Positions 12,193 to 59,144 of a stretch of DNA of 64,000 nucleotides are shown piece after piece. This DNA comes from Chlorella sorokiniana. Taxonomy: Eukaryota > Chlorophyta > Trebouxiophyceae > Chlorellales > Chlorellaceae. The stretch lies in the NCBI GenBank assembly GCA_025917655.1, contig CP084614.1, forward strand, positions 2,542,001 through 2,606,000, written 5' to 3'. Each line of letters begins with the position of its first letter. The first letter of the stretch is position 1. The position numbers were made by a program, and so were the translations under genes. Under the pieces are notes generated by a model. It ran no database searches. It was not told where the DNA came from and saw only the letters and a program-made list of their open reading frames with translations.

Positions 12193-13756
12193 ATGGCCGC
12201 TACTCCGCCACGGCGAGCAGTGCGACTGCGCCTCATCCTGACCCAGGATGAAGCACGGCCGGTGGCAGCAAAGCTGGAGGTCGTGCCTGAAGGACTGGTG
12301 TGCCTGCGGCTGCTAGTTGACGGGGATGGGCATGTCACGGTTGGCCTGGATCCTTGCCTCGGCCGGCTGGAGGACGGTACTGCCGAAACATGCCCTGTGG
12401 GCCTGCTCTTACCATCACACCAGCCCAGCAGCGGCGTCACGCAGCACACATCGGCAGCGCAGCCCCTTGGGACCGCTCTTGAACAGCGGCACGCGGCTCT
12501 GCTGCAAGAGCACGCCTGCCTGGAGGGCCTCGTTCGGCGGGTGCGCTCGTGGCTGGTGGGGTAGCTGCTGCGCTACATCCCTTCGTGGCACAGGATCGAC
12601 ATCCATCATGCATGCCCAGACGATGACGCAATTGCGCGTTCTCCCTGCCCACAGCACCTAGATGACGTCGCCGAGGCTGGCCGGCCGAGGCCGCAGAACT
12701 TGCACGGACAGCAGGCAGCAGACGCCGCGGAACAGCGGTACCTGCTCGCCCTGCAGCAGCTTCACCGCCTGCTGGGAGAAAAGGAAGCTGCGGCGGCCGC
12801 TGCCGAGGCTGCTCTGGCGCCCGCCAAGGCGCGCCTCGCGGCGGCGGAAGCCAGGGTGCAGGCCCAACGGGTGGCGCTGCGTGCGTTTGTGTCTGACGTC
12901 GCCGCCGCCTCGGCTCGAGCGGCGGCGGGGGTCGCGTTAAGGCAGGCGTCGCCCGGCCGCCCTGCAGCACTTCCAGTCTGCAGAGCCCGCTGCTGTGGCG
13001 CGCGTGGCGGCACTACATAACGCCCACGCGCGCCTCACCCACCAGCTGGCCGCCTTGCAGAAGCGGTACAAGCAGGCCGACCTGCTGTCTGCAGAGGGGC
13101 TGCATTTGGTTGACTACGAGCAGCTGCGCATAGAAAACGCGGGGCTGGCGGCGCGGCGGGAGGCGCGGGCGGCAGAGGTAGAGAAGCTGCGCGGCAAGCT
13201 AGCGCAGGCTGTGCAGGTTGGCCTTGGGGGCGTGTGGGCAGAGGCGGTGGGGGTTGATGACGTGAAGAGCCTGCATGTCGCTGTTTGGGTGCGCATGTGG
13301 CTGCACTGGACAAGTGGAATATGCATGGGCTGGGGAGCGGCGCACGAATTGCCGACACGGAGCCCAGCAGTGCAGCTCCCAACACAAAAGCCACAGAAGC
13401 CAGCAGGAGCACCTGGCATCCACTTTTTAGCCACAACCCTGCATTTCCCCACATACACCCAGATAACTGCCCATGTGCGGGAGAAACTGCACCGCACCAG
13501 CCACGAGCGCTCAGCGCTGGCGTGCCGCCTGGCTGCGGCCGACGCAGAGGCGGCCGAGGCTCGCGCGTCGCTGGGCGCGGCACGTGCGGCGCGCGAGCGT
13601 GCGCAGCGGGAGCGTGGTGAACTGGCCCAGGACTGGCGCATTGTCAGCGACCCGCGCTGCCTGGCAGACATGCGCCGGCGAGCGGCGGAGCTAGAGGGGC
13701 TGATGGCGGAGGCGGCGGCGCTGCAGCGGCAGTACGAGGTGCTGGGCGGCGCATGA
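12193..13756 (+). CDS. CFAP184: CCDC96/CFAP184-like coiled-coil protein (ciliary family)
   Basis: Four exons join in phase: 12193-12540, 12655-12930, 12977-13216, 13463-13756, giving 385 aa. The N-terminal third is globular or unstructured. From exon 2 on the protein is an almost continuous coiled coil. The diagnostic part spans exons 3-4: GLHLVDYEQLRIEN, then ITAHVREKLH, and a final RRAAELEGLMAEAAALQRQY. These match the conserved C-terminal domain shared by CCDC96 and CCDC113, whose animal members carry G-L-H-x-x-D-[FY]-E-Q-L-K-I-E-N and V-K-E-K-L-H. In ciliates and animals the two proteins form a complex near the base of radial spoke 3 of motile cilia. The GLHL start favours CCDC96 over CCDC113. 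The protein is shorter than animal CCDC96, lacking a long acidic N-terminus. Whether exon 1 belongs to this gene is likely but unproven. The intron at 12931-12976 would be only 46 nt. Confidence 0.8.
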
Positions 13757-14386
13757 AACAGCCACACATATTCTGTGGGCCGCCAAACTGTCAAGCATAT
13801 TGACAGAGCCGCATTATGCAGCTTATTGATGGGCTTAATCTATTCTGGCATCTCCTTCACAGAACTGCAAGGTGAAGAGGCGCGAGGCGAGGCTTGGCGG
13901 CAGGACTGTTGGTGGGGACTCTGCAACTGCAGCACCTTGCTGGCCCCTTAGCGGGGGTTGCCGTGCCCTGGGAAGGCTTACAGCCAAGCTGACTAAACTT
14001 CAAGCTCCCTTTGAACCTAGGGAGGGCAAGGAAGACGGCAGAAGTTCAGACACCAGAATGGTGTCGGCACGGTATTGCGGCGATCCATCCAATTCACACA
14101 AGGATTGCTTGCTTCAAGCAAGGCAGCCGATGTCGTTCTGTTCAGACGCCGGTCGGAGTACCCAACGTACTGCCAGGAGCGGGGTGAAGACAGGGGCGCC
14201 TGCAGCCCATCGGTCTATTTTCCGGCCTTGTGTAGTGCTGAAGTTGTGCTTTGGAGCATCTAGCAATCCCTCACACGGCACTGGCCGCTCCTTTCGGCCG
14301 CTTCACCGGGAGGCCCCCAGACGGAGAATACAGCGCGTACTTGAAGCGACCAGTTGCTGGGACACCGTGCTAGGCAGACGCGTGCA
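13757..14386. other. Intergenic: CFAP184 3' region and TOP1 upstream region
   Basis: About 630 bp between two plus-strand genes. AT content rises at 13780-13860 just after the CFAP184 stop, as expected for a 3' untranslated region. The rest should include the TOP1 promoter and 5' leader. No additional gene is supported. Confidence 0.5.
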
Positions 14387-24805: not shown

Positions 24806-27800
24806 TCAATGGGACCGGACGTGTTGTCGCCTGCTGGCCTTGAGGGCGCCCGGCTGGGTGGCATCACGGCTGGCCTGCGCCCTCCGCCTGCGGGGGCGCC
24901 GGCGCCGCGGCCTCTGGCAGCGGCAGGTAGGTGCCGCGTGAGGGGGCGGCCGCAGCTGGGTGAAGTCTGGGGAGCCGCCGTCTCGGAAGTCGCTGTACAG
25001 GTCATCTGCAGCAGCATGTGGCAGGCAGGGTAGGCATGACGCTTTATTACCAACCCACGTTGGCACACGTACCGGAAAGCAGAAGGCTGAGCCATGGGCC
25101 GGCTGCAGCCACAAGCGCTGGCCTGAAAATTGCTTTGTTTCAAAGTCCGAAGTGCTCCCAGCTTGCCTGAGAAATCGTGGGTGCGGCGGCGGCGGGAAGG
25201 CGGTCAGCCACGGCATGTACCGCCCGCTCCACCTACAAGCGGAGCGGTACACGCTAGCTCTTGCGCAGCGCAGCGCCGCAGCGGCTGCAAGACTGTGGGT
25301 CAAGGGAGCGGAGCGCGCTGCACAGACCGCCTGTAAGACCGTATGCACACATGGGCAGCTCGCCTGTGGGAAGCGGTCGTAGATGCGGTCGCGGAAGGCA
25401 GCCACCCCTGCGGCCGCCGCCGCCACCACGCCCAAAACCAGGATGGCCACTGCCCAGCCGCCGTGGCCGCCGCCCCTGGAGGCGGCGCCGCTGGCCTTGG
25501 GGTCCGCGGATGGCGGCGGGTCTGGGGGTAGAAGGGGCGTCGCCTCCGCCGCCGCCGGGCTTGGAGTGGGGTTTACGGGCCGAGCGCTGCCGCCGTTGGT
25601 GCACACAGAAGGGCTGGTCTTGGTGCAGCTCCAGCCGGGCTCAACCTGCACGTGTGCGGCGCCGCATACGGCACTGAGAGGACACGCGAGGGCAAGCTTT
25701 GCTGGCGATTGCCTGGGCAGGCGATGGCGGCAAGTGCAGGGCATGCCTTGCTGGCGGCTGCTGCACAGGCTGGGATCCCTTGCACTGCAACAGTAGTACT
25801 TCCAGAAGAGGCCCACCTTGCACTCTGCAGAGCATCCGTCGCCGCCGCCGGGATTGCCGTCGTCACACTCCTCCAGCCCTTCCAGCAGGCCTGCGGGCGG
25901 CAGCTTGGGGAACAAGCTTGATAAGAGACAGCTGGCCCAGCGGGGAAGCGCTCGCTGAACAGCGGAGGCAGGGCACGGCAGGAAGAGGGTTGCCGGTCAC
26001 ACACCCTGCCCTGCTGCCGCGCAGGACAAGCAAGCCCACCGTCCCTGTGGGCCAGGCATCCAAACCGGCACAGGAGTAATGCAACAGCAGAACTGCCCCC
26101 TCCCGCCCCCAGCCCACCGTTGCCGCACACGCTGAGCCAGCGCACCACCTCCCAGCGCGGCGTCTCGGCGGCAGTCAGGTCGTGGCCGCGCCCGAGATGT
26201 CGTGCACCCGCCAGCCCTGCCCCTCATCGAAGTTCCTGCAAATCGCAAAAGGGGGGCACGCGCAAGGAGAGTCGCCTTTAGGCTTCCGTGAGAAGCTTCC
26301 ATGGCACTGGGCACCGCTTTCGGTGGCATGGGGTCCAGGAGGCTGGGGCCAGGAGGCGAGATGGTTGGAGGGCCTTTGAGGGCGCCACACACACAGCACA
26401 AACTCGTGTCGAACAAGACTTGTCTGGAACAAGGCAAGACAGAGCGGTACAGGCCCACCAGTAGGCCACCAGGTCGGGGTCGTGTGGGTCCACGCCGGCC
26501 TCCCCGCCCGCTCCCCCGTCACGCCGCGTTGGAATAAGCTGCCCCGCATGCCGTCCTGGATCTGCGCAAAGGGAGTGGGGAAGGAAAGGGGGGGGAGGGG
26601 GCACGCTTGAGAGGAGGAGTCCAGGGGGATACCCCTTGCAGGCACGATTGCAGTAGTTTTGTGCACCTCTCGCCGCCAAAGTGCCCGACAGCAAAAGGTT
26701 CAGCTTCACACGGCCAGCAGGACAGGCAGCGGCGACTGACGGATGCCACCGCCTGCTGCCAGCTGGCTCTGGGATGCTCAGGGCCAGCAATTTGCCGCAC
26801 CTGCTGCTGGTTGCGTGCGCGGCGCCACAGCCGCATCTCGTCGATGAGGCCGAAGAAGTCCTGCGGGCACAGCAGGCGCGGCCAGGCTAGCTGCGTGATG
26901 CTAGCAACAAAGCAAGCTCCAGCTTCTTTGCTTTTTGCACACTGTTTGGCTATTGACATCCAATTGTCGATGTTCATCGACAGGTGTGCTGCACACTGAG
27001 CCCTCTCCCCCTGCTCCCTGGACCACCCACATGCGCCCCCCCCACCCACCCCCCCACCCCCACCCCCACCCAACCCCCCAACCCCCACCTGCGCCCCGTA
27101 CTCCTGCTCCAAGCCGCTCTGGGTGTCCCCCGCAGCCCCCGCCGCGGAGTCGAAGCAGCCGCCCTCGCAGTCCTGCTCCCGCCCCACCACCAGCGTGCCG
27201 CCCGACGGGATGGCCTTGCCGCGCCCGCGCACCACAGACCACACCTGGGTGGCAGGAGGGGCGAGCGTCATGCAGGTGTGGAAACGGGGTGGCAGAGCGG
27301 GTAGTCGAGTGGGGCGGGATGGGTTGTCCCGGAGGTGGAATGGGTGCATGGTAGAGGGGTGTCTGCCAGGTCGGCGTGTTGAAGGCGACGCGTTCGGGGT
27401 TCATGCCTCCCGCACCGTCCCAGACAGCTCCAAATGGCATGGTCAAGCCGCTGCAAATGGCATGGTGGAGCCGTTGCCACAGCCGCTCACCTCCCTGCCG
27501 TTGTCGTACAGCTTGACCTGGCCGTCTGACGAGCGCCAGCTCACCGCCACGTGGTGCCAGCGGCCGTCGGTGGATCCCACGCCGCTCAGGTGGTCCGACA
27601 GGCCGCCCTCATCTTCCATCACAGACACCTTAATGGCACGTGGATATGGGGGCGAGTCAAAACTTGTCGTATGCCTGGGCAGCAAAAGGCCTCAGGGCAA
27701 TGCAAATGATGAGGCTGGACAGGCTGGTGCAAGGGCAGCCGGGAGTCGAAAGGGCACATCAGGCAGCGCCGCAGCGGCGGGCCGTGGGTGCGCACCCCCA

Positions 27801-30800
27801 GCTGTTGTAGTTGAAGAGCAGGAATGAGTTGTCTGAAGCCTCAGGGTGAAACAAGAGGGCAGTCAAACAGCTGTGTTTTTGAGCAGCAAGGCACCACGCG
27901 CATCGTTTCGAAGAGCTGCCCTTTGAAGCAGGCGCTCACGGCACGCCATGCAGGCGCAGCGTGCACAGCCTCCCACCTGACTTGGCGTAGGTGCTGCCCC
28001 CGCAGCGTAGCTGAACGGCACTCCCTTGCGGCAGGTGTCTGCAGGGGGCGTCGGGAATGGCTCGCTTGAATGATAACTGTGAGATATGTGCCTGTCGGCA
28101 GCACAGAGGCAAGCATGTGTGTTCTGGCCCTGCGGTTCCCTGATCATAACTCAAGCCTCCCATGTGGCCCACTCTCCTCCACTACCGCCCTCTGCCCGTG
28201 GGCCATGTGCCAGCGATACTTGCAAGGAGCGGTGAGGCAGCCATGCAGTGCCCCACCGGTGCTCATCATCCAGAACTCCAGCGTAAGCTCATCCGATGGG
28301 AAGTCTTTGAAGTCCTTCAGGATTAAGACCTGGTGGAAGAAAGGGGGAGGGCATGCAAGCGGAGGGAGATAAAAAGTAATGGTGCTGGCTAGCAGAACGA
28401 CTCTGCTAGCACCTCTCCCCTGCCGGCCCCAGAGCAGTTTCCAACAGCGCCCGAGTATGCATCTCGCTTTGCGACGGCACATGCGACTGGGTGATTGAAT
28501 CGCGCACCCCCTTTGCCAGCCCACCTGCTGGTCCGACAGGAACATGGCATGGCCGGCAGCCCCGGGGTGGGCGGCGCCACCGGCTTGCCGTCAGGCTGGG
28601 CCAGCGGTGCGGTGCTGTACACCCAGGACGGAGCGTCGGCGCCGAGGTACAGCTGGTTGGCGGCACCTGCGGGGCCCTCCCCCATGATCCTGGTCTGCGA
28701 GGCGGATGGGTGATTGTGGGGGTGTGGGTGGGTGAGTGTGTGTGTGTGTGTGAATGGCTGAATGAGTTTTGTGTGTGTGTGTGGGGTGGGGGTGGGGGTT
28801 GGGGTGGGGGGTTGGGGTGGGGTGGGGGGCCTGAGCGGATGGGATTGAATGAAACTAGGTGCGTGTGGCAGCCCCCTGCACCGGCTGCCCTAAAATCGCA
28901 GCCAGGCATGCGGTAGGGGTTACAGGCAGGCAAGCGATGCGGGAGCAGTGGCCTGCCTGCACCTGTACCGCTTCCGGGATGCAGCTTCAGGGGAGCCAGA
29001 CCAGGGGGATTGCAGCGGGCAGGCAGAGAGAGGTGCCCCTCCGGCGAACCCACCTGGCGGTCCTCGTCCCGCACCAGCTTCTCCGGCTCAAAGCTGTACC
29101 GCGCCACCAGACCCTGGCTGTGCTTCGGCTCCTCCTCATACATGCCAGCTGTCACCTCGTCTCTGCAGAGCAGGGAGAGAAGGCAAAGGAGTCGTGGGCT
29201 GGCTTTCAGCGGCGGCGGCAGCCCTTGCGGGGTTTTGCCGAGCATGGCAGGCCGCGAGTGGATGCTCTGCAGTGCCCTGCCTGCACAAGTGTGCTGATGG
29301 ATATGCTCAGCGGTTTGTGCTGAAGCGCAGCGGCTGATAGAGGGTGCGGCAGGCCTCCACCACTAGGTGGAGGAGGCGCTGCGCCCAACCAAACAGCAGG
29401 CGCAGCAAGGCACTCTCAAGAGCTTGAAAGGTGCAGTTGCCAACTCTGCCCTGGGTTGACAACTCGCCCCTTCAACCCTCAACCCTCAACCCTCACCCCC
29501 ACACCTGCTCAGCACTCGGTTCCACACCCGCAGGTTGGCGAGCTCGCCCGGAGAGAGTCCTCAGGGCTAAAGCAGCCGCCTGCGCGGGGCCAGAGCGGGA
29601 GCGTGGGCCTCGAGCTTGCAGGTGGTCAGCAAGCAAAGTGCCGTGTTGCCTCAGGGGGCGTGCGGCCGTCGGTGGGCCACATGTGACCGGGCAGGAAGCG
29701 GGCCTGCAGCAGGCGGGCAGTCCAGGCGCAGAGCTGCCGGCCTGCCCACCGTAGCAGTCCTGGCTCTGCCCCAGCACCAGGGAGCCGTTGGCGGCTCGGG
29801 TGGTGCGGGCAGCAATGCGCGGGTCCACGCCGCCGCGGGAGGGCGCCTTCACCTGCAGATTTCCTTGCCACAAAATCAGCCCGAGCCAAATAGGCTGCAA
29901 GGAGGGCTGAAAGGGGATGAGCCAAATAGGCTCTTCATCTTTCGTGGCCTCCTGCTGTTGGGAATCGTCCGCTGGGGCAGCTGAGGATGCAAGCGCATTG
30001 ATGACGGCAAGCGGGCAGCACAATGTGCACATCGATGCCTCCAGCAGAAGCAAGTTGCTGCCCCGATCAGCGTAGCCCGCCAAGACGCACACCACTTGCC
30101 TGCATCTGACCAGCGCGGGAGGCCCAGAAGGGCGTTTGAGGCTTGCCGTCGAAGTACAGCTTCACCTCGCCGCTGTCCCAGGCCCAGCTGACTGCGACGT
30201 GGTGCCAGGCGTCGTCCACCCTGCATGCATGCGAACAGCTAAGGTGTGGTTGGTGGTAGCACGAGCATGCTGCACTCCAGAGCTCTCAAAGCTGCTCGCG
30301 GCCGCTCCCTGCTTGTGGCGATGCCTGCCCGACTTGCAGGAAGGCGCTGGAGAGTGCGAAGCCTGGTGGACTGCAGGCAGGAGAGGCAGGGTCCGCCCAC
30401 CAGCCAGTGGCAAAGTCCAGCCAGTGGTCGTATCGCTTGCCGTTACCCTCGCGGTTGGCGTTTATGTGCACCGACAGGGAGCCGCGGGTGGAGAAGCTCT
30501 CGTAGTCCAGCCAGTGGGAGCCCTGTGTGGGTGGGTGGGTGTGGGTGGGTGGGGTGGGTGGGTGGGTGGGGGTGGGGGGTGGGGGGTGGGGGGGGGGGGG
30601 GGGGGTGGGGGGGTGGGGGTGGGGGGTGGGGGGTGGGTGGGTGGGGGAGGGCGGGCGGCGGGGGAAGTGAGGGAGGGCGGGCGGCGGGGGGGAAGTGAGG
30701 GAGGGCGGGGGAGGAAGGGAAGATGGGTGGGTGGGGTTTGGGGGCAGGGGGTGCACTCGGCGGGCAACAGGATAGGCAGCCACCACGGGCATGATTGCGC

Positions 30801-36123: not shown

Positions 36124-37668
36124 TCAGTTGGTGTACTTGGCGCCGCGGGGGCGGTGGCAGAGGCACGCGGGATCTTCATGCGCCCTTCCAGCGGCCGCGA
36201 CGTTTCGTGGAAACGGGCGGCCTCGGTCAGCCCGTTTTCAGACACCCAGGCGCTTCCGGCGGTGAAGAAGTCGGGGCCCAGCAGCCCCTGCCGGCTGTTG
36301 ATGGCGTGGGTGGCCTCGGGGGCAGCGGCGGCCTGCGTGGGGGAGGGCGGCGCAGCGCCTGCCTGATGGAGGTGTTTGAGGCAGTGCAGCCACAACAGCG
36401 CCCGGTTTGGCCCTGCCTGTCGCAGCAGCACGCTCCCAAGGAGCCCGTTCCTGATGCAGGGAACTCAACATGGATCCCCTTCCCCCTTCCCCCTCCCCCC
36501 ACCACACACCCACACCATCCCCCACCCCCACCCACCCACACCCACCCACCCACGCGCACACACCCTCCTCCTGCTGCCCAGCCCTTCCACCTGCGCAGCG
36601 CCTGCTGGCTGGCTGCTCCCCAGGTGGTGAGAGCGGTGGGCGGCGGTGGCTCCAGAGCAGCGCCGCCGTGCCGCGTCCGGTGGCCGGTGTAGCCAGGCAG
36701 GCGGCCGTGGGAGTGTTGGTCCAGCGCAAAGAGCAGGGCGTCCTCCTTGCGGGGGCGGGGGGCTGCGGCGGGCGGGCAGGCCGCAGGTCGGGCGGCAGCT
36801 CGACCGGATCTGCAGAGGAGCAAAAAAAAAACAGGTGGGCTGATTTGCGAGGACGGTGGCAGGCAACAGCGTGCAGCGGCTGTGTCTGTGCACTGTGGGC
36901 AGCGGCGGAAAGCAGGTGGGTGTTCGCTGCGGCAGGCTGGCACCTGGCAGCAGGGTGGGCGCTGCTGTCGCGGTGCAGCCGTGGCGCCCTCTGCGCTGGC
37001 AGGCAGGCTGGCTGCCATCGGCTGTTGGCCTGATGGCCTGCGGATGGTTTTCGACCTGCCGCCAACGGGCGGCAAACTGCTCTGCCGTCAGCCGCTGGCT
37101 GGCGGCGGATGTGGTGAGGTAGCCGGGGTGCACAGCAGCAACGCTCGCCCGCTCTGCCGGTGTAGCCGTTGCTGAATCGCTTCCCTTGCCTCCCATATGA
37201 CTGTACGGGCCGCAGCTATCGCGATGCCCTGCATTGACATCGCCGGTGTCACGGTGCAGCATCTCCGCTTGGTACGTGGACTTTGCGTGGAAGGGCGCTG
37301 GCGGACGCCTCTCCCGCGGCCGCCGTTGCAGCGGTTGTGCTTTCCGGCGCGCGGCGCACGCGTGGGTCAACGGTGTAGTCGTGACCGGGGTTGATTGTGA
37401 AGGCAGCCTTGTAGGAGGTGGTTCTGCCGCCGAGCGCAGAGTCCTCTTCGGTCCAGCTGACTGGCTGCCGCTGCTGGCCGCCGGGCGGCGCGGCTGGGTC
37501 CCGCTCCGTCAGTCGCGTGTGCAGGGCAGGCGGCACGCACATGCTGCCCGGCACGAAGCCGCTGTAACCCGGCACCGCATCGGGCCGGTAGCTGAGGGCG
37601 TTGCCGCCCGCACACACAGCGGTTGCCCTGGCGGGCGGCCGCCGGCCGCGCTGCAGACCGAGGGTCAT
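36124..37668 (-). CDS. PGYxG-motif protein, CIMIP2/FAM166-like (putative ciliary microtubule inner protein)
   Basis: From ATG 37668 the first exon reads ...YRPDAVPGYSGFVPGSM..., then SYKAAFTINPGHDYTVDP, with a donor near 37360. A second exon (about 37285-37050) gives GPYSHMGGKGSDSATATP and PGYLTTSAASQRLTAEQF. The third (about 36812-36598) carries ALDQHSHGRLPGYTGHRT. The last (about 36322-36124) holds LGPDFFTAGSAWVSENG and ends KYTN. Repeated PGY[ST]G[FH] motifs are the hallmark of FAM166/CIMIP2 (DUF2475) proteins, known as microtubule inner proteins of cilia and sperm tails. Outside these motifs I cannot align it. The frame changes at two G5 runs (36147, 36751), each apparently one base short, which makes exon joining less secure. 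Other PGYxG axonemal families are possible. Confidence 0.5.
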
Positions 37669-43208: not shown

Positions 43209-46200
43209 TCACCGCAGCTCCGTGATGGCCTCTGCAAAGGAGGGCCGCTCAGAGGGCTCCTGGGCCCAGCACCGCCGGATGAGCGCCGTGTAGGCGTCGT
43301 ACGATGCCAGCTGCACAGGAGGGTTCGCGGGAGGCAAGCACCTGAGTGTCAGAGGCACTTGTGGATGTCCAAGCTGGCATTTCAGGTAGAAGGGATGATT
43401 CAGACAGTTGAGGGAAGTAGATGAGTACAAACCCCAATCACACTGGGCAGGCGGGATCACCTGGTCAGCCCCGGCAGCTCGCCGGGCGGCGGGATGGGCA
43501 GGCGCTCGCCGCGGCTGACCATGAAGACGAGCTGGTACAGGTTGGCGCCCTCCCAGGGCAGCCGCCACGTCAGCAGCTCCCACAGCACCGTGCCGAACGA
43601 AAACACGTCGCTCTCCGCGGTGGCGGGGCGCCCCATCAGCACCTCGGGGCCAGCCAGCGCGGGTTCAGCATGCCGCCGGCGGAGCTGGAGCGGGCGCTGT
43701 CTTCTAGCAGTTTGGACAGGTTGAAGTCACAAACCTGCATGCAGGGAGAGGACCAAAAGGCATCACTATTGGTTGGAGCTGAAGAAAGGCGCAACAGGAA
43801 CGCATGGGCCAGCTCCTCGCTTGCAGAGGCTACAGCAGCCCCCTTGGGGTACAGCAGATGCGACGGCATAGCATGAATAGAATGAGCTGTTTGCCTCCTC
43901 ACGCACCTTAACCCGCCAAGCAGCGTCGACCAGCAGGTTGGGGGACTTGAGGTCGCGGTGCAGGATGGGTGGGCTGTGGGCGTGCAGGCACAGCATGCCC
44001 TTTGCCGCATCCAGGGCCATGCTCAGCCGCCGCATCCACGTCAGCTGCTGCGCTGCCTGGGGGAGACGTGGCCCGCACGCAGCACGTCCAGCAGAGAGCC
44101 TCGCGAGCAGTACTCTGCGAGACGGGGAGGGAAGGGGGGGTCATCTTGCAGCGGAACATGGGATTGCATGCACGGCGACGTGAAGCTGCGTCACCACATT
44201 GCCTGCCCTAGTCTGTGCACGCACGCAGCCAGCCAGCCACCCCCACACCACACAACCACCCACGCACCTGTGACCACCGCGGGCGGCGAGCTGCAGACTC
44301 CGAGAAAGAGGACAATGTTGGGGTGTCGCAGGCTGGCCATCAGCCCCGCCTCCTTCTCAAGCTCCGCTATCGCCGGCGCCGGCAGGGAGCGCAGGCCGCC
44401 GCCGCTCCTGGCCGCCGCCGCCGCGTCGTCCGTCGACAGCAGCAGCTTCACCGCCACCAGCGTCTCGTTCCAGGTGGCCAGGAACACCTGCGGGCGCGAT
44501 GAAGGCAGCGCAGCCACGGGTAAGAGGCCGCCCAGCAGCCAGCGCCGGGCATCGCAGGCTGCCACAAGCCGCCGTACTGTCCGCCCCCGACAGCTTGCCT
44601 TGCCGCAGCTGCCCTCGCCCAGCGGCCGCTGTATGCGGAGCTCGCTGTACTTGAGCTGCCAGGGCTTCAGATCCACCAGCCCGCTGCTGCGCCGCAAGGT
44701 CAGCGAGGACGGCCCGCCCGGCTGCTGCCGCCGCTGGGCGCCGAGCGCTCCACCTCGCTGCTCTGGCGGGATGGCGGCGCCGGGGGCAGCGCGTCGCCCG
44801 CCCCCCGCCTCCTCCTGCAGCTGGCTGTTCACCCAGGAGAGCAGCGGGTCGCTTTGCACGCTGCAGGGGGCGGGGAGGGGGGCGAGTCAGAAGGGTGAGG
44901 GTTGCTGTTTTTGGTGGCTACGCCGGGTGCTTGTGTGAGCAAAACCAGGGCAGCCGCCAGGCGGTGGCTGAGACCATCCCAGCCAACTGCCTCCCCTCCT
45001 GGTCCCCCCCACACCCACACACACACACACACATGAAAACGCCACCCAAACCACAAGCAGCAGCATGGCACGCGTCCTCCCTACCTGGGCGGCTGTGACA
45101 CCGTGGCTGAGCCCCCCATCTGCAGCATCTCCAGCTCGTCCTGCTGCATGTGCTCCGTCACTGTGGTGGCCGCCGCCGAAAAGGGCGGCGAAGGCGGCAG
45201 GACCGTGCCAGCCGCGCTCCCTGCTGCAGACTCGCCGGCCGCCGCCGCCACGGCCCACAGCTGCGCGACGCCGGCCATCCCATACGGCGACCGCGGCGTT
45301 GCCGGGGGCCGCCGCGATGATGCCGCTGGCCGCCGTTCCGCCGCCCTCGCTGCCCGCGTAGCCGCGTGGGGCGGCGCGGCGGCGGCCGAGATGGCCACGC
45401 CGCGCGAGCCGCCGCCGGGCTTGGCTGCACCGGTTGCCCGGCCAGGCTGCTGCCGCCGCATTCAAGGGAGTCCAGGGGTCACACTGCAGCTTTCCAGTGT
45501 CTGCAGAGGAGGCGGAGCCGCCGGGGTGCAGGCCCGGCGGCGCGGCGGCGGCTTGCGCGGCCTGCCGGCACCGCTTGTGCCGCCGCCGCAGCCACATTAT
45601 GAGCGCCGCCGTCACCACGATGAGGGCTGCAGGGGCAGGGCAGGGCAGCGTGGGTGTGGGCAAGCATGTCGGGGCCGCAGGATAGGCCTTCATGGGGCGA
45701 CCAGCAAGCAGCTCTGGCGCCGCCGCTCACCATTGCCGCAGACGACGCCCGCCACAATGGCCCCCACGTTCACAGTGGAGCTCTTGGAGGTGGAGGTCTT
45801 GTTGGTGTAGGTGGGGTGAGGCACCACCCACCACATACGGCAGCCTGAAGAGGTCCAGGGCCCGAACCAGGGCTGCAAGAACGGGCGGAAGGGGGCGTGT
45901 GGTGAGACGGTTGCCGAACGCCCCTCAGACCCAGTTCAAGGTCGGCAGGGCCGAGCATGCGCCGGCAGGTGCCGCGTGCTCGGCTCATGTGGCCCGCCCC
46001 ATCAGCAGCCAGCGCACCCCGTATGAGGTAGTCGCAGTCGTCCTCCTCTTTTGGGCAGTACAGTCGGTCGCAAATGTCGCTGCGCAGGGCGGTACGGGCG
46101 CGTCGCGGAGGGGGACGTCAGCGGGGCTGCCGCAGCAACGCGGCGGCGCTGCCGAGAGGCTTCACGCGCCGTGTACCAACAGAGCAGGGTGTGGACCCCG

Positions 46201-48277: not shown

Positions 48278-51200
48278 TCACCGCAGCTCCGCGATGATGT
48301 CTGCAAAGGATGGCCGCTCCGAGGGCTCCTGCGCCCAGCACCGCCGGATGATCGACACGTAGGCCTCGAAGTCTGCGGGCCCCAGCGCTTCAGCCCCCGG
48401 CAGCTCGCCGGGCGGCGGGATGGGCAGGCGCTCGCCGCGGCTGACCATGAACACGAGCTGGTACAGGTTGGCGCCCTCCCAGGGCAGCCGCCACGTCAGC
48501 AGCTCCCACAGCACCGTGCCGAACGAAAACACGTCGCTCTCCGCGGTGGCGGGGCGCCCCATCAGCACCTCGGGCGCCAGCCAGCGCGGGTTCAGCATGC
48601 CGCCGGCGGAGCTGGAGCGGGCTGTGTCCTCCAGAATCTTGGACAGGTTGAAGTCGCAGACCTGCGTACGGCAAGCAAAGGGGCTGTTCGGTGCAACGCA
48701 GCGAAAAGGGATCGGGCTGAGAGACGAGTTAAACCACACGGGCTTCCGGCAACAGCGCGGCTGGAAGCTGTTGACAGCTGGAAACGAAGCAGAAGTAAGC
48801 TGGCTGTCGATTGTGGGGAGCAGGCAGTGAGAGGCGGCTGGCGCCAACGATCCCAGCCCAGCTGCGGTTCCCCACCTTGACCCGCCAAGCAGCGTCGACC
48901 AGCAGGTTGGGGGACTTGAGGTCGCGGTGCACGATTGGGGGCGCCCGTGCGTGCAGGCACAGCATGCCCTTGGCCGCATCCAGGGCCATGCTCAGCCGCC
49001 GCACCCAAGTGAGCTGCAGCGCTGCCTGGGGCGAGACGTGCCCCGCACGCAGCACGTCCAGCAGAGAGCCTCGCGAGCAGTATTCTGCGGGACCGGGGGA
49101 GGAAGGGGCCCACCAACCTCAACGCGCAGCTCCTCTCACGGGCAGCGGGAAGCATTGCAAGGGCAGGGTGACGACTGCGCTGAGGAATGGTGGGTGCTTT
49201 CCAGGGCTCTCTTCCATCATCACCCCCTCCGCCACGACTGTTCCCACCTGTGACCACTGCGGGCGGCGAGGTGCAGAGGCCGAGGAAGAGCACCACGTTG
49301 GGGTGGCGCAGGCTGGCCATCATCCCAGCCTCCTTCTGCAGAGCCTCCAGCGCCGGCTGCGGGAAGCCCAGGGAGGCGCTGCCGCTTTGGCCGCCGCCGC
49401 CGCGTCCTCCGTCGACAGCAGCAGCTTCACCGCCACCAGCGTCTCGTTCCAGGTGGCCAGGAACACCTGTGGGGCACGATGAAGGCAGCGCAGCCACGGG
49501 TAAGAGGCCGCCCAACGGTCAGCGCCAGGCATCGCAGGCTACCACAAGCCGGCGTGCTGATGGTCCACTCGGGGCTCAAAGGGTCCAAGGCTGGGCTTGA
49601 GGTTGATGGCAAACGGGCAGTCGGAAGCCATTCGCGGAAGCGCAGCAGCCTGCTGTGGAGCGGCTGTCACTGGCAGCCCCCCGACACACTCGCCCCCTCT
49701 TCCGCCTTGCCTTGCCAAAGCTGCCTTCCCCTAGCGGCCGCTGCATCCTGAGATCCTTGAAATCCAGCAGCCAGGGCTTCAAGTCCACCAGGCCGCTGCT
49801 GCGATTGGAGTCGAGGGCGGTCCAGCCGCTGCTGCGCCGCCGGCTGCTCATGCCCGCAATGGGCGCTGGGAAACCCGCTGCAGCTCCCCCACCCCGTCGC
49901 GGCCTTCCTCCTGCTGCTCCTGCTGCTCCTGCTGCTGCGGCTGGGCCTGCTCCCCCTCCTGCTGCGGCTGGGCCTGCTCTCCCTCCTGCTGCGGCAGCAC
50001 CTCGCCGCTGTCCGCGACGGGCGACAGCGTCGCGTCGCTGGGGCGCGCGCCGATCGATGGCACCAGGGGCGGGGTCTGGCTGCCGGCAGGTGCCGCCTGC
50101 TGCTGCAGCTGGCTGCTGACCCAGGAGAGCAGTGGATCGCTTTGCATGCTGCAGGCGGCGCGCCAATCGCAGGCCGCTCTCTCAGCATCAATGGGACAGC
50201 CGTCCCAACAGCTGGATTTGTAACCCCACCCACCCTCCCCCCCAAACACACACCACCACCACCACATGAAAACAACGACCATAGACACGAAGTCATCCCG
50301 CAGAACAACCTTCAGGCTCCCCACCCACCTCTTCTCCCTTTCCGAGGGCGCCGTCATGCTGCCCAGATGCATCATCTCCAGCTCGTCGTACTGCAGGTGG
50401 CTGGCGGCGACGGTACCGCTGGACAGGGGCGGCGAGGGGTACGGCGGCGACCACCCTGCCGCCACAGCCGCCTGGGCCCAGGCGTGCGCCAGTGCCTGCA
50501 TGGCATCCGAGGCAGTGGTTTGCGGGGCGGCGGGGCTGTGGCTACGGCTGGAGCTGCGGGCGGGGCGGGGCCGAGCGCAGCGGCGGCCACCTCGGCGGCT
50601 GCCAGGGGCGCCGAGGCGGCAGGCGCGCGGCGGCAGCAGGGGCTGCCGTGGCAGCAAAGGAGGGGCCCTCGGCAGCAGGGGCGCCAGCTGCGGCAGCGTC
50701 ACGCGGCATAGCTGCGGGCGGCGCTGCGGGCTGCAGGCTGGGGGCGGCAGCGGGCGGCGCGGGCGGTGCGCCTGCCGGCGGCCAGGCTGCAGCTGTGGCG
50801 CCCGCGGCGGCGGGCGGCCGCAGCGGCGCGGCGCCGACCTGCTTGCTGGGAGGGGCGTCTCCGCGCTCCGCCGCATCCAGCCCCAGCCCGCCGCGGTGGG
50901 CGTAGATGGCGCTGCTGCTGGGGGTGCCGCTGCCGCCGCCGTGGCCCAGCACAGCCCCGGGGGCAGGTGCGGGTGCAGGTGGTGGGGCGGGTGGCCCATC
51001 TCCAGCGCCTTGTGCTGCGCGGCCACCATGCGCGCTCTGTGCCGGCGGCGGCGCAACCACACAAAGCCGCCCACGATCGCCACGATCACGGCTGCGGCAG
51101 GGGGCCAGCAACACGTGGGCAGCCAGGCTGGAGGCACAGAACCCACCGGCCCAAGGGGGAGACAGAGCGGGGCACGATCCAAACCCGCGGAACGGGTTTG

Positions 51201-52595: not shown

Positions 52596-53292
52596 GGTGC
52601 CAAAGCCACCTCAAGAGTCCGACGCCAAGGAAGCCATGTGAAAGAGGCGCTGCAAGTTCACCGGGGCAGGATGCGGGCTGACGCCGGCAAAGGCGAGGGG
52701 CCGGTGTTTAGTTAGGTAAGCGGCCAGCGCTCTCAGCGCCGCCGCCTGCATTGCTCCAGCGCTGCCCTTCTTTGCAGATGCGCCTCTTTACAGCGCTATA
52801 ACCACTACATTCGACTTTTACCTTAATATTATCCTAAAACCGAACACTAGGGCACGCTCACTGGGCTCACTGGATAAGCTTGAAGTCAAACTCAGTTGGT
52901 TGTCGGAGCCTGGCGAGCGTTGCCCCAGACAAAGACATTTTCGACAGGCCTGTATTTTGTAGTTTTGATACTTTTTGTTTGTTTTAACTAACTCAGCAAC
53001 TAAACCGAACTCAGCTGTTGGGCAGGCCAGGTAAAGAAGGTTTGATTTCTGGCCATTATACTGTCGGGCGGCTGCACAGCCACATGTGTATCAAACTGCC
53101 GGTGAATGGTTTCCTGCACACTTTTACATGAGTGGCAAGTTTGAACTTCACTGGGCGGCAGCAACACGCAGGAGGAAACACGAAAGCGCAGAGGAGGAAG
53201 CGCAGTGAACGGACAAAGGGTCAAGCATGGGGATGGGGAAACGGTGGCCAGCCTAGCTGCTGCTACTGGCGCATTTGCAGCCTGATCGGCAC
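52596..53292. other. Intergenic region with an AT-rich island
   Basis: The upstream flank of kinase paralog 2 and the 3' flank of the RING gene, both on the minus strand. From about 52795 to 53010 the sequence is strikingly AT-rich for this window (for example CTTAATATTATCC and TTTTTGTTTGTTTTAAC). An AACCGAAC motif occurs near both ends (about 52838 and 53003). No coding feature, terminal inverted repeat or transposase trace was found. Confidence 0.5.
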
Positions 53293-54510
53293 CTAAGCCT
53301 GCTGCTGCTGTTGCGGATGATGATGGAAAACAAGCTGCTGCTGCTGCTGCTGCTGCTGCTGGAGCCTGTGCTGCTGCCGCGCCGGCGCATGCACCTGCAT
53401 GCAGAGCCAGCGGCTCTCCTTCGCCGACACCTCCCCAGACGCCGGGCCGGCAAAGGGAGCCAGCCCGCGCGGAACGCTGTGCGCTGCCACGCGCGCCCAG
53501 TGCACGCTCAGCTCCCGCATCTCCTCCTGCTGCTCCCGGCTGGCATGGTCGAATGCGCAGCCTCCCACGCGGCCGAGCAGGGGCCGGCCTGAAGCGCCGG
53601 CGCGGAGCCGCGGCACTCGCAGCACATGCATGTGCAGCTGCAGCTCCCGTGCAAACGTCGGCGGGTCAGCGCCGGCACGCAGAGAGGCCGTGCGCTGCCA
53701 CCCCGCCTCGTAACTCAGCCAGCGGCTCTCCTCTGCAGACCGCTCGAGAGAGTATGCCGCTAGGTGCGGCGGCGGCGTCAACGGCAGCGCGGCTGCCAGC
53801 CGCTGCCCCGCCTCCACCGACGCCCGCACGAGCGCCTCCTCGCTCAAGTGCCCGGATAGTATCTGCGCCTGCTGCGGGTCAGCTCGCCGCTCCCGACGCC
53901 GCCACTCCTCCTCCGCCTCCCTCTCCCGCCGCCGCCGTTCCTCCGCCTCCCTCTCCCGCCGCCGCCGCTCCTCAGCCTCCCTCTCCCGCCGCCGCCGCTC
54001 CTCCGCCTCCCTCTCCCGACGCCGCTGCTCCTCAGCCTCCCTCTCCCGCCGCCGCCGTTCCTCAGCCTCCCTCTCCCGCCGCCGCCGCTCCTCCTCCGCC
54101 TCCCTCTCCCGACGCCGCTGATCTTCCACTATCTTCTCAATCTCAAGGCGCCGAGCTGCCACGCGAGGCCCCGCGGCAGCCTCCACTGCTGCTTTGAGCC
54201 GCAGGCAGACCCTTGGGATGGTTTCAGGCAGCGCCGCGCGGCACACTGGGCAGGACGTCCTGCCATGCTCCACCCTCCATGCCGTGTAGCAGTGGCTGCA
54301 AAAGTCGTGCCCGCAAGTCCCTACCACTGGATCCACCAGGACGTCGGCGCAAACGGCGCAGTCCCACTCTGTACGATGAAGACAGGGAGAGGGAGGGCGG
54401 CGGGTGGCGTACGGCGACAGGAGCAGCGCAGGAGGAGTGGGGGCAGGCGCCCACTTGAAGTCCCTCGGAGATTTGGCAGGGCGCTTTCCATCACAAGCAC
54501 GTGTCAGCAC
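53293..54510 (-). CDS. RING-finger protein with Arg/Glu decapeptide array and poly-Q tail
   Basis: The open frame has a C3HC4 RING near its N-terminus (about 54370-54240): CAVCADVLVDPVVGTCGHDF, CSHCYTAW, TSCPVCRAALPE. Then comes a charged region of about seven copies of a ten-residue unit (EAEERRRRER, 54115-53895), predicted as one long helix. A globular part with two W-containing segments of similar form follows (AEESRWLSYEAGW, AKESRWLCMQVHA), and a poly-Gln/His tail ends at the stop codon 53295-53293. RING proteins are usually E3 ubiquitin ligases; the target is unknown. No ATG exists in this frame before 54510 (the first possible start is GTG). A spliced upstream exon is therefore likely, or the ATG is missed, and the given upper limit is only the open-frame limit. 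Confidence 0.7.
   Translation of the reverse strand: MLTRACDGKRPAKSPRDFKWAPAPTPPALLLSPYATRRPPSPCLHRTEWDCAVCADVLVDPVVGTCGHDFCSHCYTAWRVEHGRTSCPVCRAALPETIPRVCLRLKAAVEAAAGPRVAARRLEIEKIVEDQRRREREAEEERRRREREAEERRRREREAEEQRRREREAEERRRREREAEERRRREREAEERRRREREAEEEWRRRERRADPQQAQILSGHLSEEALVRASVEAGQRLAAALPLTPPPHLAAYSLERSAEESRWLSYEAGWQRTASLRAGADPPTFARELQLHMHVLRVPRLRAGASGRPLLGRVGGCAFDHASREQQEEMRELSVHWARVAAHSVPRGLAPFAGPASGEVSAKESRWLCMQVHAPARQQHRLQQQQQQQQQLVFHHHPQQQQQA
53331..53363. repeat. (CTG)n coding microsatellite, poly-Gln
   Basis: About nine to ten CTG/CAG triplets encoding the poly-glutamine tract near the C-terminus of the RING protein. It is a simple triplet repeat. Confidence 0.9.
53895..54115. 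repeat. 30-bp coding tandem repeat (decapeptide array)
   Basis: About seven imperfect copies of a 30-bp unit (plus strand CTCCTCCGCCTCCCTCTCCC followed by three GCC-type triplets), encoding the Glu/Ala/Arg decapeptide array of the RING protein. Copy number variation is likely. Confidence 0.9.
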
Positions 54511-54780
54511 GCGTTAGAGTGAATGGATGCTCAGGGAAGCCACACCGCACCCGAACTGTCGGGCTCGCTTGTTCCACTGTGCGGGGTTCCTGAATTCCCG
54601 GGGGCCGCCATCTAGCTCACCATGACTCAATTTAAGTTTTACAGAGGCATCTAATGGCAGGAACAGCTCCACCCTGAGATTCACATGAAGGCCAGCTAGG
54701 ACCGCCTCGTGAAGGTAGTTTGTTGCCCTTGTTTTCCTTTGCAGCGTGCTTTCAGGTACTAACAAAGCCTTGTGGAGGTA

Positions 54781-57700
54781 ATGATGGCCGGAATGGGGGA
54801 GGCAACCACTCCGCCATTGCCTCAAGACCTGGCGAGCTTTCGGCAGCTCGTCTCGCAGCCGCTGTTGTTGCAATCTCCGCTTCAGGTGTTATGCATTTCG
54901 CGAGATGCCGCAATCCCCGGCTAGCCGTTTCAGTGGTCCAACCTCGCCACTGCCTACCGAACGCAGGGCTTGCTGGAGCTGCTTTTCAGGACCATCGAGG
55001 CGCATGAGAGCTCAATTCTCGAGCTGCAGGCCCAGGCGGCCGGTCAGGAGCGGCTGGAGGCGGCGGCGCTGGGTCGCCTGTCGGCGGCGCAGGATGAGCA
55101 TGCGGCAGGAACCACGCAGTCCCTGCGGAAGCTTGAGAGCCGCTTGGAGGGGCAGCAGCGCACCGCCGAAGCACAGCATGCGGCCGTGGACGAGCGACTG
55201 AAACGTCTGGAGCTGCGGCTGCGGGGCGTCAGCAACGCGGCGGGGCGGCAGGCGGCGCTGGACGACATAGCGTCCATGCTGGGCGTGGCTGTGCCCCAAC
55301 AGGCGAGGCACCTTTTATCAGAAGCACTTGCTAGGGTTTTCAATCTGCAGGGTTTGCCACTCGGCAGCCTCGCATGCACCGATGTGGCGGAGTAGGCCCC
55401 GAACAGCTTTTTGCTTACCTTCCACTCTGCCTGCCGTGCCCTGCTGCAGGCGCCGCAAGCGGAGGAGGACAGACTCGACGCCGCTGCCACCGCCAGCCAA
55501 GCCGGGCATGAGCTGGCGCTGACGCTCTCTGAATTGCCAGCAGAAGCGCCATCAAAAGAGCATTCTGGGCAGGGCAGCTGCGATGCTGGATCCGAAGCGG
55601 CACATACTGCTTTGCGAAGCCAAATGGCCTCTGCGGCACCCATTAGTGCAGCCCAGCCAGGGGTGGACGAGAGCAAGCAGGCAGATTTCACCAACGAGGA
55701 GGTTGAGGGGGCTGACACCCCGCCAGCGCCAGCGGCGGAGCACAGCGCGACGCATGCGGCAGGCGCACAGCATGTGGATGTCTCTGCAGGCTGGCCAGCA
55801 ACCGACCACCTCAGCAGCCCTGCTGCAAACTTGGCAGGCCGAGGCAGCGCCACGACGGATCAGGGCCCGACGCAAAGGCCGGGCAGCCCCTCAGCCAAGC
55901 CGTCGCGGCCAGCCAGCAGCGAGCGGACCAGCGCGAGCGGGCGCAGAGGGCAGCCGCGGGCAGCAGCCAGGCACCTCTGTTGGGCCCAGCAAGCGGCGCA
56001 GCTGTCGCCAGCCACGGAGGCGCGGCTGCTGCGGCTGACGGCTCGGTCTCTGCCATCCAGCAGCCCGCAGCAACCAGGCCGCGGACCTCCAGCGCTGTTG
56101 CCTCCCCTGCAGCAGTTATGGCTGCCGCGCAAGCCGACAGGGCTCGTCCTGCTGCAACGCAGGGTCGCACAGGCACTCCAGCCATGCCAGGGCGCAAACT
56201 TTCATCCGGCCACCCACGCTCATCCCAGCTGGCAGGCGGCACTAGTTACGTGCAGGGCCGGTCCCGCACCCCCTCCCGCCCCGCTGGCGTGGCCCCCTGC
56301 GCATGGGGTGCAGGGCCCAGCAGCACAGCCGCTGGTTCAGACGATGAGGGCTCTGGCTGTCCACCAGATGAGACTCAGCCGTCGGGCGCCGCCTCTCCGC
56401 CGCCCGCTGCGCGCCGCGACTCAGGTGAGAGCTTAACGCTGCAATCCAGCCACGATGCGTGTAGGGGGCGTCGCAGGCAGCACGGGGCAACCACGGCATG
56501 TGGGCCGCAGCCTGCGTGGCCAGTGTTTAGCAAAAACACAGTCAGCGCCATTGCCCTCGCTCGTCCCGCCTGCCGCCTCGCCTGAGCGCCCCTCACCGCC
56601 TGCCGTCGCAGACGCCGCCCGCTGCCTGCGGGAGGTGGGGGACCTGCTGCGGCGCCGGCCTAGCGTGCACGAGGGCGGGCTGCTGTGGAAGCTGCAGGCA
56701 TCGCTGCATGAGGCAACGGCGGAGCAGGAGCGGCTGCGCGGGTGGGCTGACAGCTTCGGGGCACCACTGTCTTGTCTTGTTCACATGCCTGACCCTCGTA
56801 AAGGCCCCGACCTGCCTCTCTTTGTGGGAGGCGGGCCCCCGTTGCACAGAAAGCAAGGGGGAGGCAGGTTCCAAACCCTGGCCTTGCCCCGTGCAAGCCA
56901 GCACACCGCGGCCAGCGGCCTTCCGCATGAAGCGTTGAGCATGCTTCCTGAAACTGCGTGCAGGGAGGTCGCAGAGCTGCAGCAGCGCCTGGTTGCGCAG
57001 AGCGCCGCTGCTGGCTCCGGGCTGGCGGCCTGCCACACCCGAATCGACGGTGTGGAGGCGGCGGTGCGGGCCGGGCGGCGGCTGGGGGCGTGCCCCGCAG
57101 TGGAAGGCTCCAGCGACTGAGGGGGTGACAGCACGGTGGGCTGCAGGGCTGCTGTGCCTGCTTTGGTGGGGTTGGGTGCACCACAGGAGGAGAGGCATGG
57201 CTGTTGCTGGGCAGAGAGCATGCCCGCAGGCTTGCATTGCCTCCCTTCTTTTGAATCGCCTGGGTATGTGTGTGTGCTCCGATCGCCCCGCCCCCCCCGC
57301 CCCCACACCCCCTCCCTCCTTCTCTCACCTGAGCTGCGTTGCCCCATCTCTCACACACGTCAGCAGGTCTTGGAGGGGCGGGTGGGTGAGCTGGAGGCCC
57401 TTTCCCGGCAGACAGCTGGCCGCCTGGAGCAGCTGGGAGGCCAGGTGGCGGCAGGGGACGCCCGGCTGGCCCGCCTGGAGGCGGCGCAGGAGGCGGGCGC
57501 CACGGGGCCACGCTGGCCCAAGCGTTGGCCAGCGGAGATGCCGCCGACACGGCCGCCGCGCTGCAGGGTCACCTGCTGTCGCAGCAGGCCAAGCTGTCTG
57601 CGCAGGTGGCGGGGGCGGCGGACGGCATTCGCCGGGGCTGCCGGGGCAGGTGGGCCGGGCAGGGGGTGCGCCGGTGCAGCAGCTCAAGCGACAGCACGCA

Positions 57701-59144
57701 GCTGCGAGCGCAAAGACGTGCGGAGCTATGAAGCCCCGCCTTGTACACTTGTACACTGAATCACCCTCATGCCTTGTACACAGCGGTGCAACTGGTGCTC
57801 TTGATTCTGTTGCCTCTGTTGCAGGTGCACGACGCGGTGGCTGGTGCGGCGGCCGAGGTGGGGCGGCGCCTGTCGGAGCGGCTGGCCACCAAGCAGGAGC
57901 TGACCACGCTCAGCCACAAGGTGGGCCGCCTCTGATGGCCTTCCGCCCCGCTCTGCCCGCATCGCTGTCCGGCTCTGTGTGCCGCGTCGTTGCTGTGGGA
58001 CAACCCAACCGTGCCAAGCTGAAGCGCTAGCACATGACGCAGCAGCGCTGCATCTAAGCGCTGCAGCTTAGTGCGCACAGAGTCGGCATGCCCCTCCCAC
58101 ATTGCTCACACTTTCCTCGCCGGCCCTGTGCAGCTCAACAGCAAGGCCTCCCGAGAAGACGTGGACCGCCTGCTGCGGGCGCACAAGGCTACCACTGCCG
58201 CTGCCGCCGCTGCGGCAGATGGCGGGGCGGGCCCTGCGGCGGGCCTGAAAGTCAAGTGCCTGAGCTGTGACTCGGACCTGCAGCCGTTCATGTTTGCAGC
58301 CGGCCCAGGAGCGCTGGCTCAGGGGCAGGGGGGCGGCAGAGCTGCGATACACGCAGCTGCCGGCGGCTTCCCCGCCGCGCAACCCATCCGCGCACTGGGC
58401 CTCCACTGCGGCGCCGCTGTCGCAGGGCGGCGGCGGCAGCTACGTCGCTCCTGGCAACCAGGTGCAGCCGCTGACCCAGCAGCCCTGCCCTGCCCGCCCC
58501 AGGCCCTCCACTGCCACATCACGCCTCGGCCAACAGGCCGGCTGGATGCAGCGGCTGCCTCACGATGTAGACGGCGGGCAGCTCTCCCCGGGCAGCTCCC
58601 GACGCAGCAGCGTTGGGCAGGCGGCAGGGCCACTGGCAAGGCAGGCCTCCCTGCCAGCTGCGCCGCCGCGGCGGCCGCAGACAGCTGCCCCAGGCGTGTC
58701 TGCCCTGAGCCGGCAAGGCAGCTCGGCAGCTGCGGCCGACCTCACGCTGCAGCCTCCTGGGAACTTGGTGGCGGGGGCAGGCAAGCAGGAGCAGCAGCTG
58801 CAGCAGCACCAGCAGTATCTGCCTCGGGGTGCCGACATCTGTGCAGCGAGCAAGCAGGACAGCCCAGTAGCCGACTGTTTTGAGGAGATCAGGGAGGTGC
58901 CAGAAGCGCAGCAAGAGGGCAGCCATCGCGTCGCTGGCGTGCCTGCAGAACAGGACTCGGGTGCCACCCGCATGTGCCTCCCCAGCGGCAGCAGCAAGGC
59001 CGCCCTGCCAGCCCTGTGCTCGCCGGGCGCATCAACGCCGCGCGGCCAGCCACGGCAGCGCTGCCTCTGGGGCCCGCGGCGGCAGGGCTGGGCCACGACA
59101 TTGCATCTCTGGGCGCAGGCAAGCGCCAGTCCGCCGGCTTGTAG
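54781..59144 (+). CDS. QRICH2-like DUF4795 coiled-coil protein (cilium-linked family)
   Basis: Exon 1 (54781-54885, MMAGMGEATTPPLPQDLASF...) joins exon 2 at 54934 (WSNLATAYRTQGLLELLF) across a 48-nt intron, giving the short N-terminal helix pair typical of DUF4795 proteins. Exon 2 continues as a coiled coil (ESRLEGQQRTAEAQHAAVDE). A long low-complexity middle follows (55450-56420), then further coiled exons: CLREVGDLLRRRPSVHEGG (56620), LEGRVGELEALSRQTAGRLE (57370), RRLSERLATKQELTTLSHKV (57868), and SKASREDVDRLLRAHKA (58140) leading to VKCLSCDSDLQPF (58250), the Cys-x-x-Cys-Asp signature closing DUF4795 in QRICH2. The tail is Ser/Pro/Gln-rich and probably ends RQSAGL at 59144. QRICH2 is needed for sperm flagella in mammals. 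Frames change near 55958 (G3) and 58328 (G6). A GC donor at 55303 is one option for the end of exon 2. Confidence 0.6.

What the first reader, a model, noticed from the sequence alone, without database searches (positions are those of the whole stretch)
12193..59144. Three cilium-family genes in one window of a probably non-flagellate alga
CFAP184/CCDC96 (12193-13756), a PGYxG CIMIP2/FAM166-like protein (36124-37668) and a QRICH2-like DUF4795 protein (54781-59144) all belong to families known mainly from motile cilia or sperm tails. If the source is a coccoid Chlorella-type alga, as I infer from gene style, their retention argues for a cryptic flagellated stage or for reuse of axonemal proteins. 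Chlorella genomes have been reported to keep many flagellar gene homologues, so this would extend a known puzzle. All three keep long conserved blocks rather than decaying.
Basis: partly seen in the sequence, partly recalled or inferred. Interest (0 to 1): 0.72.

Follow-up and report, generated by a model that had tools for sequence, protein, structure and literature searches.

The report
Flagellum genes in a Chlorella-type alga
A Chlorella-type alga thought never to swim still carries genes for parts of a swimming tail, including just two of the usual many motor genes, which hints at a hidden swimming sex cell, an idea already raised for its relatives.

Summary
Two of the three genes are confirmed. 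12193-13756 is CCDC96/FAP184 (PF13870 E 5e-26; best solved relative 8glv_Fy, E 4e-22). 37668-36124(-) is a FAP129-type PYG-repeat microtubule inner protein (6u42, E 2e-7), the family that includes human FAM166/CIMIP2. The third, 54781-59144, reaches DUF4795 only below cut-off (E 0.016).

The 38.8-Mb genome is Chlorella-clade: photodecarboxylase stretches are 126/140 and 70/88 identical to the solved C. variabilis enzyme.

Three dynein families find the same two heavy-chain loci and no other: outer-arm alpha and gamma orthologues, with motor domains across the gene. IFT46, IFT144 and HAP2 are present. No inner-arm, outer-arm beta or IFT dynein was found; RSP3 and RSP4/6 gave nothing, without positive control.

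This resembles the diatom Thalassiosira, whose gamete axoneme uses outer arms alone. Best reading: a rare flagellate gamete. The general puzzle is in print for C. variabilis and C. vulgaris; the two-dynein inventory is the addition.

The parts
12193..13756 (+). CCDC96/CFAP184 gene; one consistent model: exons 12193-12540, 12655-12880, 12984-13216, 13463-13756 (the second intron is one of 18 that fit)
   Evidence: PF13870 E 5.3e-26, 8glv_Fy E 3.8e-22, intron enumeration
13022..13216 (+). core CCDC96 block (GLHLVDYEQLRIEN motif)
   Evidence: PF13870 exon hit E 4.7e-8 in whole-genome search
13460..13744 (+). C-terminal CCDC96 coiled coil
   Evidence: PF13870 exon hit E 5.1e-9
36124..37668 (-). 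FAP129-like PYG-repeat microtubule inner protein (CIMIP2/FAM166 family); first intron fits 37359-37281; later joins and exact 3' end uncertain
   Evidence: 6u42_7I FAP129 E 2e-7; PGY motifs read in translation; intron enumeration
   Evidence: PF16043 E 0.016 on C-terminal piece, below cut-off; no PDB match; coding potential

Best explanation
This Chlorella-clade alga keeps a working but heavily pared-down flagellar gene set, used only in a rare, transient stage, most likely gametes. Inferred mechanism: IFT (IFT46 of complex B and IFT144 of complex A, both shown as genes) builds a short-lived axoneme whose doublets are lined by FAP129-type inner proteins and carry a two-headed outer dynein arm made of the gamma-type and alpha-type heavy chains; beating is driven by outer arms alone, without inner arms and perhaps without radial spokes, and assembly proceeds without an IFT dynein; gamete fusion uses HAP2. 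Gene presence and orthology are shown; the flagellum, the stage and the assembly route are inferred.
For: Three dynein families each ring at the same two loci and nowhere else at E<=0.001. Both loci are classed alike by two separate motor regions: alpha 671 against 495 bits for the next chain and 488 against 285; gamma 463 against 345 and 419 against 295. Domains run along the genes: kelch, DHC_N2, AAA_6, stalk, AAA_9, D6 and AAA_lid_11 in the alpha gene; DHC_N2, AAA_6, AAA_9, D6, AAA_lid_11 and Dynein_C to the last profile position in the gamma gene; the AAA1 P-loop GPAGTGKT occurs in both. IFT144 (8bda, E 6.8e-38), IFT46 (8bd7, E 6.9e-14), HAP2, CCDC96, FAP129. OADs without inner-arm dyneins or DYNC2 occur in Thalassiosira, which builds its axoneme only in gametogenesis (PMC2239267, passages, section 7 part 1 of 2).
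Against: No flagellate cell is on record for these algae as far as I recall. CCDC96 in Tetrahymena bridges RS3, dynein g and the N-DRC and needs CCDC113 for docking (PMC7987202 abstract); I found no inner-arm dynein, no RSP3 and no CCDC113, so its retention fits a pared axoneme poorly. IFT144 without an IFT dynein heavy chain is odd. The radial spoke and CCDC113 negatives have no positive control. Thalassiosira keeps three OAD heavy chains and DYNC1H1, so the match is not exact. No transcript was seen, so intactness rests on profiles of hand-joined exons.
Confidence: 0.6

Rival explanations
1. Exaptation: the retained ciliary proteins serve non-flagellar jobs (trafficking, spindle, nuclear or cell-wall processes), and the flagellum is gone for good.
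For: Precedent in print: Ostreococcus keeps both two-headed inner-arm heavy chains and an IC138 homologue with no known axoneme (PMC2239267 section 7 part 1). IFT dynein heavy chain and radial spoke genes were not found here.
Against: The kept set spans separate modules, namely outer arm, doublet lumen, IFT-A, IFT-B and gamete fusion, which is easier to explain by one shared structure.
Confidence: 0.22
2. Relics: the flagellum was lost recently and the genes are decaying at different rates.
For: The frame changes in genes 1 and 3 have no unique intron solution, and in gene 1 most solutions drop residues that align to 8glv_Fy; a seemingly truncated second IFT144 copy sits 21 kb upstream.
Against: Each frame change tested can be bridged by a GT-AG intron; two very long dynein genes (some 4,500 residues in the solved relatives) keep recognisable domains along their length. 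The truncated IFT144 accompanies a fuller copy.
Confidence: 0.12
3. The third gene, and so the 'three of a kind' picture, rests on a generic coiled coil rather than QRICH2.
For: PF16043 is below cut-off and second to TelA for the longer piece there; absent; no PDB match; weak PF16043 matches also occur in 3 of 14 prokaryote controls.
Against: DUF4795 is the only family for the shorter C-terminal piece at E<=10, and its best stretch is not coiled coil but the cysteine motif.
Confidence: 0.4

Closest known systems
Chlorella variabilis NC64A (Blanc 2010) and Chlorella vulgaris 211/11P (Cecchin 2019) flagellar gene retention
   Same: Coccoid, supposedly asexual Chlorella with outer-arm dynein subunits (C. 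variabilis), a HAP2-domain gene and 114 of 195 CiliaCut genes, gametes with flagella suggested (C. vulgaris)
   Different: Apparently another species (FAP 126/140 and 70/88 identical to C. variabilis; G+C of 159 kb of sampled loci 66%, against 61% for C. vulgaris); here the dynein heavy chain set is counted and classed. Blanc 2010 was not held, so its dynein list was not compared.
Thalassiosira pseudonana outer-arm-only gamete axoneme
   Same: No inner-arm heavy chains, no DYNC2, outer-arm heavy chains kept (PMC2239267)
   Different: Diatom keeps DYNC1H1 and three OAD heavy chains; here one OAD-alpha-family (Chlamydomonas gamma) and one OAD-beta-family (Chlamydomonas alpha) chain (families as); IFT144 is kept here
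Ostreococcus retention of two-headed inner-arm dynein without an axoneme
   Same: Green picoalga with axonemal heavy chains and no known flagellum
   Different: Opposite dynein class retained; here IFT-A and IFT-B members are also present
Chlamydomonas FAP184/CCDC96 and FAP129
   Same: Best solved relatives of genes 1 and 2 (species of 8glv recalled)
   Different: Chlamydomonas has the full axoneme around them

Membership tests
CCDC96/CFAP184 | CCDC113/CCDC96 coiled-coil domain PF13870 above cut-off | tested here: met
   91.8 bits, cut-off 31.6, best stretch 242-399, after the unresolved join
CCDC96/CFAP184 | Closer to CCDC96 than to CCDC113 | tested here: met
   8j07 CCDC96 E 1.7e-13 against 8j07 CCDC113 E 0.0032
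CCDC96/CFAP184 | Partner CCDC113 present | tested here: inconclusive
   Only other PF13870 hit is a RING coiled coil; CCDC113 may fall below the exon-wise threshold
PYG-repeat MIP (FAP129, FAM166/CIMIP2) | Sequence homology to FAP129 with PGY motifs | tested here: met
   E 2e-7; PGYSGFVPG and LPGYTGH read
PYG-repeat MIP (FAP129, FAM166/CIMIP2) | Location in doublet lumen | not testable with these tools
   needs microscopy or proteomics
QRICH2/DUF4795 | PF16043 above its cut-off of 34.8 bits | tested here: not met
   15.1 bits, E 0.016; none in genome at E<=0.1
Outer-arm dynein alpha and gamma heavy chains | Best relative is the named outer-arm chain in separate motor regions | tested here: met
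   7kzm_A (alpha) and 7kzm_C (gamma)
Outer-arm-only axoneme (Thalassiosira type) | No inner-arm and no DYNC2 heavy chains | tested here: met
   only two loci with three DHC families at E<=0.001, both outer-arm class; an assembly gap cannot be excluded
Outer-arm-only axoneme (Thalassiosira type) | Radial spokes absent | tested here: inconclusive
   PF06098 and PF04712 give 0 matches at E<=0.01 but no positive control rang
Outer-arm-only axoneme (Thalassiosira type) | Axoneme actually built in gametes | not testable with these tools
   needs culture work
IFT machinery | Orthologues of IFT-A and IFT-B subunits | tested here: met
   IFT144 E 6.8e-38, IFT46 E 6.9e-14; other subunits not tested one by one

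The most novel reading that the evidence does not exclude
A green alga has arrived, independently of centric diatoms, at a flagellum driven by a two-headed outer arm alone, made of the gamma-type and alpha-type heavy chains with the beta chain lost, and assembled by IFT without any IFT dynein although an IFT-A subunit is kept.
Probability: 0.4. Interest if true: 0.78.

Novelty: new member of a known kind. Interest (0 to 1): 0.48.

Why it matters
It turns a loose puzzle (why non-swimming Chlorella keeps flagellar genes) into a short, testable list: two dynein heavy chains, IFT46, IFT144, HAP2, FAP129 and CCDC96, which should be co-expressed if a hidden flagellate gamete exists. Finding that stage would allow crosses in industrial algae, and the two-motor set would give a second, independent natural case of a minimal motile axoneme.

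Tried and rejected
Rejected: gene-cluster reading (about 14 of 606 windows would hold two or more and about one three or more if 140 such genes lie at random). Not upheld: pseudogene reading of the frame changes, since each one tested can be bridged by a GT-AG intron, though the choice is not unique. Rejected: the C11 PF13870 hit as CCDC113 (RING domain). Rejected for species naming: the C10 GMC gene, which reads to me like an alcohol oxidase rather than FAP (by eye and from recall). Argued against by composition of sampled loci only: C. vulgaris (61% G+C in PMC6972661; 66% in 159 kb here).

Led nowhere: paper searches for a 38.8 Mb Chlorella genome (0 papers), meiosis and flagellar proteins, Thalassiosira IFT-A/BBSome. 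That the two-heavy-chain inventory is not in print rests only on the listings (6 of 7 listed; 25 of 474 listed) and 58, and on passages; Blanc 2010 and one paper that I asked for by a DOI from memory were not held, so the claim is weak. Kinesin-2 was not classed: PF00225 gives 78 exon hits; five of the fetched ones served only as codon training.

Flaws to tell: the codon model was trained on 1796 codons, of which 192 (L001 and L003) were read on the wrong strand (seen); the model only ranked exons, and identities rest on profile and PDB searches. Checked: of nine hand-joined queries, seven are made wholly of stretches of six or more residues found in the source frames; the IFT46 query has 5 and one alpha query 2 residues at the start that are not, outside the IFT46 match (73-152) and two of 357 residues for alpha. 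A frame at a join may still be the wrong one, as in the FAP129 query (residues 199-221 and 278-283 are my choice of frame). The species of PDB entries 8glv, 7kzm, 8bda and 8bd7 (Chlamydomonas) is recalled, not printed by the tool.

Full report
Source. The window is contig C6:2542001-2606000 of a 38,804,885-base assembly in 15 contigs. G+C of 159 kb of sampled loci is 66%. The fatty acid photodecarboxylase matches the solved enzyme 5ncc best (that 5ncc is from C. variabilis is recalled), with 126 of 140 and 70 of 88 identical residues in two of the three aligned stretches (the third was not counted). This is a Chlorella-clade alga, not C. variabilis NC64A (46.2 Mb) and, by composition of the sample, probably not C. 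vulgaris (61% G+C; figures from PMC6972661 passages).

The three genes. Gene 1 is CCDC96/CFAP184. Gene 3 is a coding region by codon usage whose C-terminal piece reaches DUF4795 at E 0.016, below cut-off, while searches show nothing of the kind; it stays a candidate. Of 10 neighbouring pieces scanned, 7 match a Pfam family at E<=0.001: a Ras-family GTPase, LURP-one-related, laminin G, RNase PH, TPR, protein kinase and cullin; these are ordinary.

Intactness. Each window gene changes reading frame within an apparent exon. Enumeration finds stop-free GT-AG solutions for the one tested in each (18, 6 and 7), for example 12881-12983 with GTGCGT donor and CTGCAG acceptor in gene 1. That solution drops residues that align to 8glv_Fy; the only two that keep the RAFVSDVA stretch are short with a weak donor. 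So decay is not shown, nor is splicing proven without transcripts.

Genome survey. DHC_N2 (PF08393) gives 10 matches, AAA_6 (PF12774) 9 and AAA_9 (PF12781) 8, all at two loci, C7 about 1.02-1.04 Mb and C13 about 0.96-0.99 Mb; every first-look candidate was scored. Of 14 prokaryote controls, 0, 3 and 0 ring, none over cut-off. Joined exons of the linker and AAA1 region rank outer-arm alpha 7kzm_A first for C7 (671 bits, next 495) and gamma 7kzm_C first for C13 (463, next 345); the AAA4 and stalk region agrees (488, next 285; 419, next 295). Selected exons from the rest match kelch, MT stalk, AAA_9, D6 and AAA_lid_11 in C7, and D6, AAA_lid_11 and Dynein_C up to profile position 309 of 309 in C13. 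The C7 C-terminus was judged by eye, and the C13 5' end may lie beyond the fetched stretch. So no beta outer arm, inner arm, cytoplasmic dynein 1 or dynein 2 heavy chain was found.

IFT and sex. IFT46 has one locus and its best solved relative is IFT46 8bd7_D. PF24762 rings at two loci on C1, one over cut-off: that one is IFT144/WDR19, a complex-A subunit; the other, 21 kb upstream, matches it at 87% over 2.2 kb, after which no further similarity beyond a 58-base piece is found in the stretch held. HAP2 has five exon hits at one locus, four over cut-off. RSP3 and RSP4/6 gave 0 matches, with the tool's warning that nothing rang anywhere.

Reading. Wickstead and Gull (PMC2239267, passages and section 7 part 1 of 2) place Chlamydomonas alpha in the OAD-beta family and gamma in OAD-alpha, hold that one of each predicts a two-headed arm, and describe Thalassiosira as building a gamete axoneme with outer arms alone and no DYNC2. 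The present set fits a two-headed arm and the diatom pattern. The same paper supplies the main rival: Ostreococcus keeps inner-arm heavy chains with no axoneme. I favour a transient flagellate gamete (0.6) because unrelated flagellar modules are kept together. Against it stand CCDC96, whose known neighbours RS3, dynein g and CCDC113 (PMC7987202 abstract) were not found, and IFT-A without its motor.

Prior knowledge. PMC7455551 (passages) states that non-flagellate species completely lack 'dynein heavy chains (DHC1-7)', central pair proteins and most IFT and RSP; if DHC1-7 means inner-arm chains, this genome does not contradict it on dynein. PMC4168999 (passage) reports outer-arm subunits in C. 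variabilis, and PMC6972661 (passages) reports 114 of 195 CiliaCut genes and a HAP2-domain gene in C. vulgaris and draws the Thalassiosira parallel. [quoted passage not shown] The finding is a new member of a known puzzle, with a sharper dynein count.

Noticed in passing
L041 and L042 (C1 about 700 kb and 679 kb): Two IFT144-like copies 21 kb apart, 87% identical over 2.2 kb including introns; the upstream one loses similarity after that and looks truncated. A within-genome pair for measuring constraint.
   Followed up: partly
window 43215-44490 and 48284-49469 (-): Two neighbouring protein kinase genes with very similar kinase exons, a likely tandem duplicate.
   Followed up: no
window 25300-33742 (-): Apparently one long gene: its first exons match laminin G/pentaxin; later exons look like repeats of it and end in a membrane-like segment, by eye.
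   Followed up: no
window 53326-54144 (-): RRREREAEE repeat followed by an unassigned stretch, no Pfam match, just before gene 3.
   Followed up: no
L043 and L046 (C3 4.53 Mb): Fatty acid photodecarboxylase orthologue, 80-90% identical to the solved enzyme in the two stretches counted.
   Followed up: partly
L036 (C11:541543): PF13870 weak hit is a coiled-coil protein with a RING finger, a false lead for CCDC113.
   Followed up: yes
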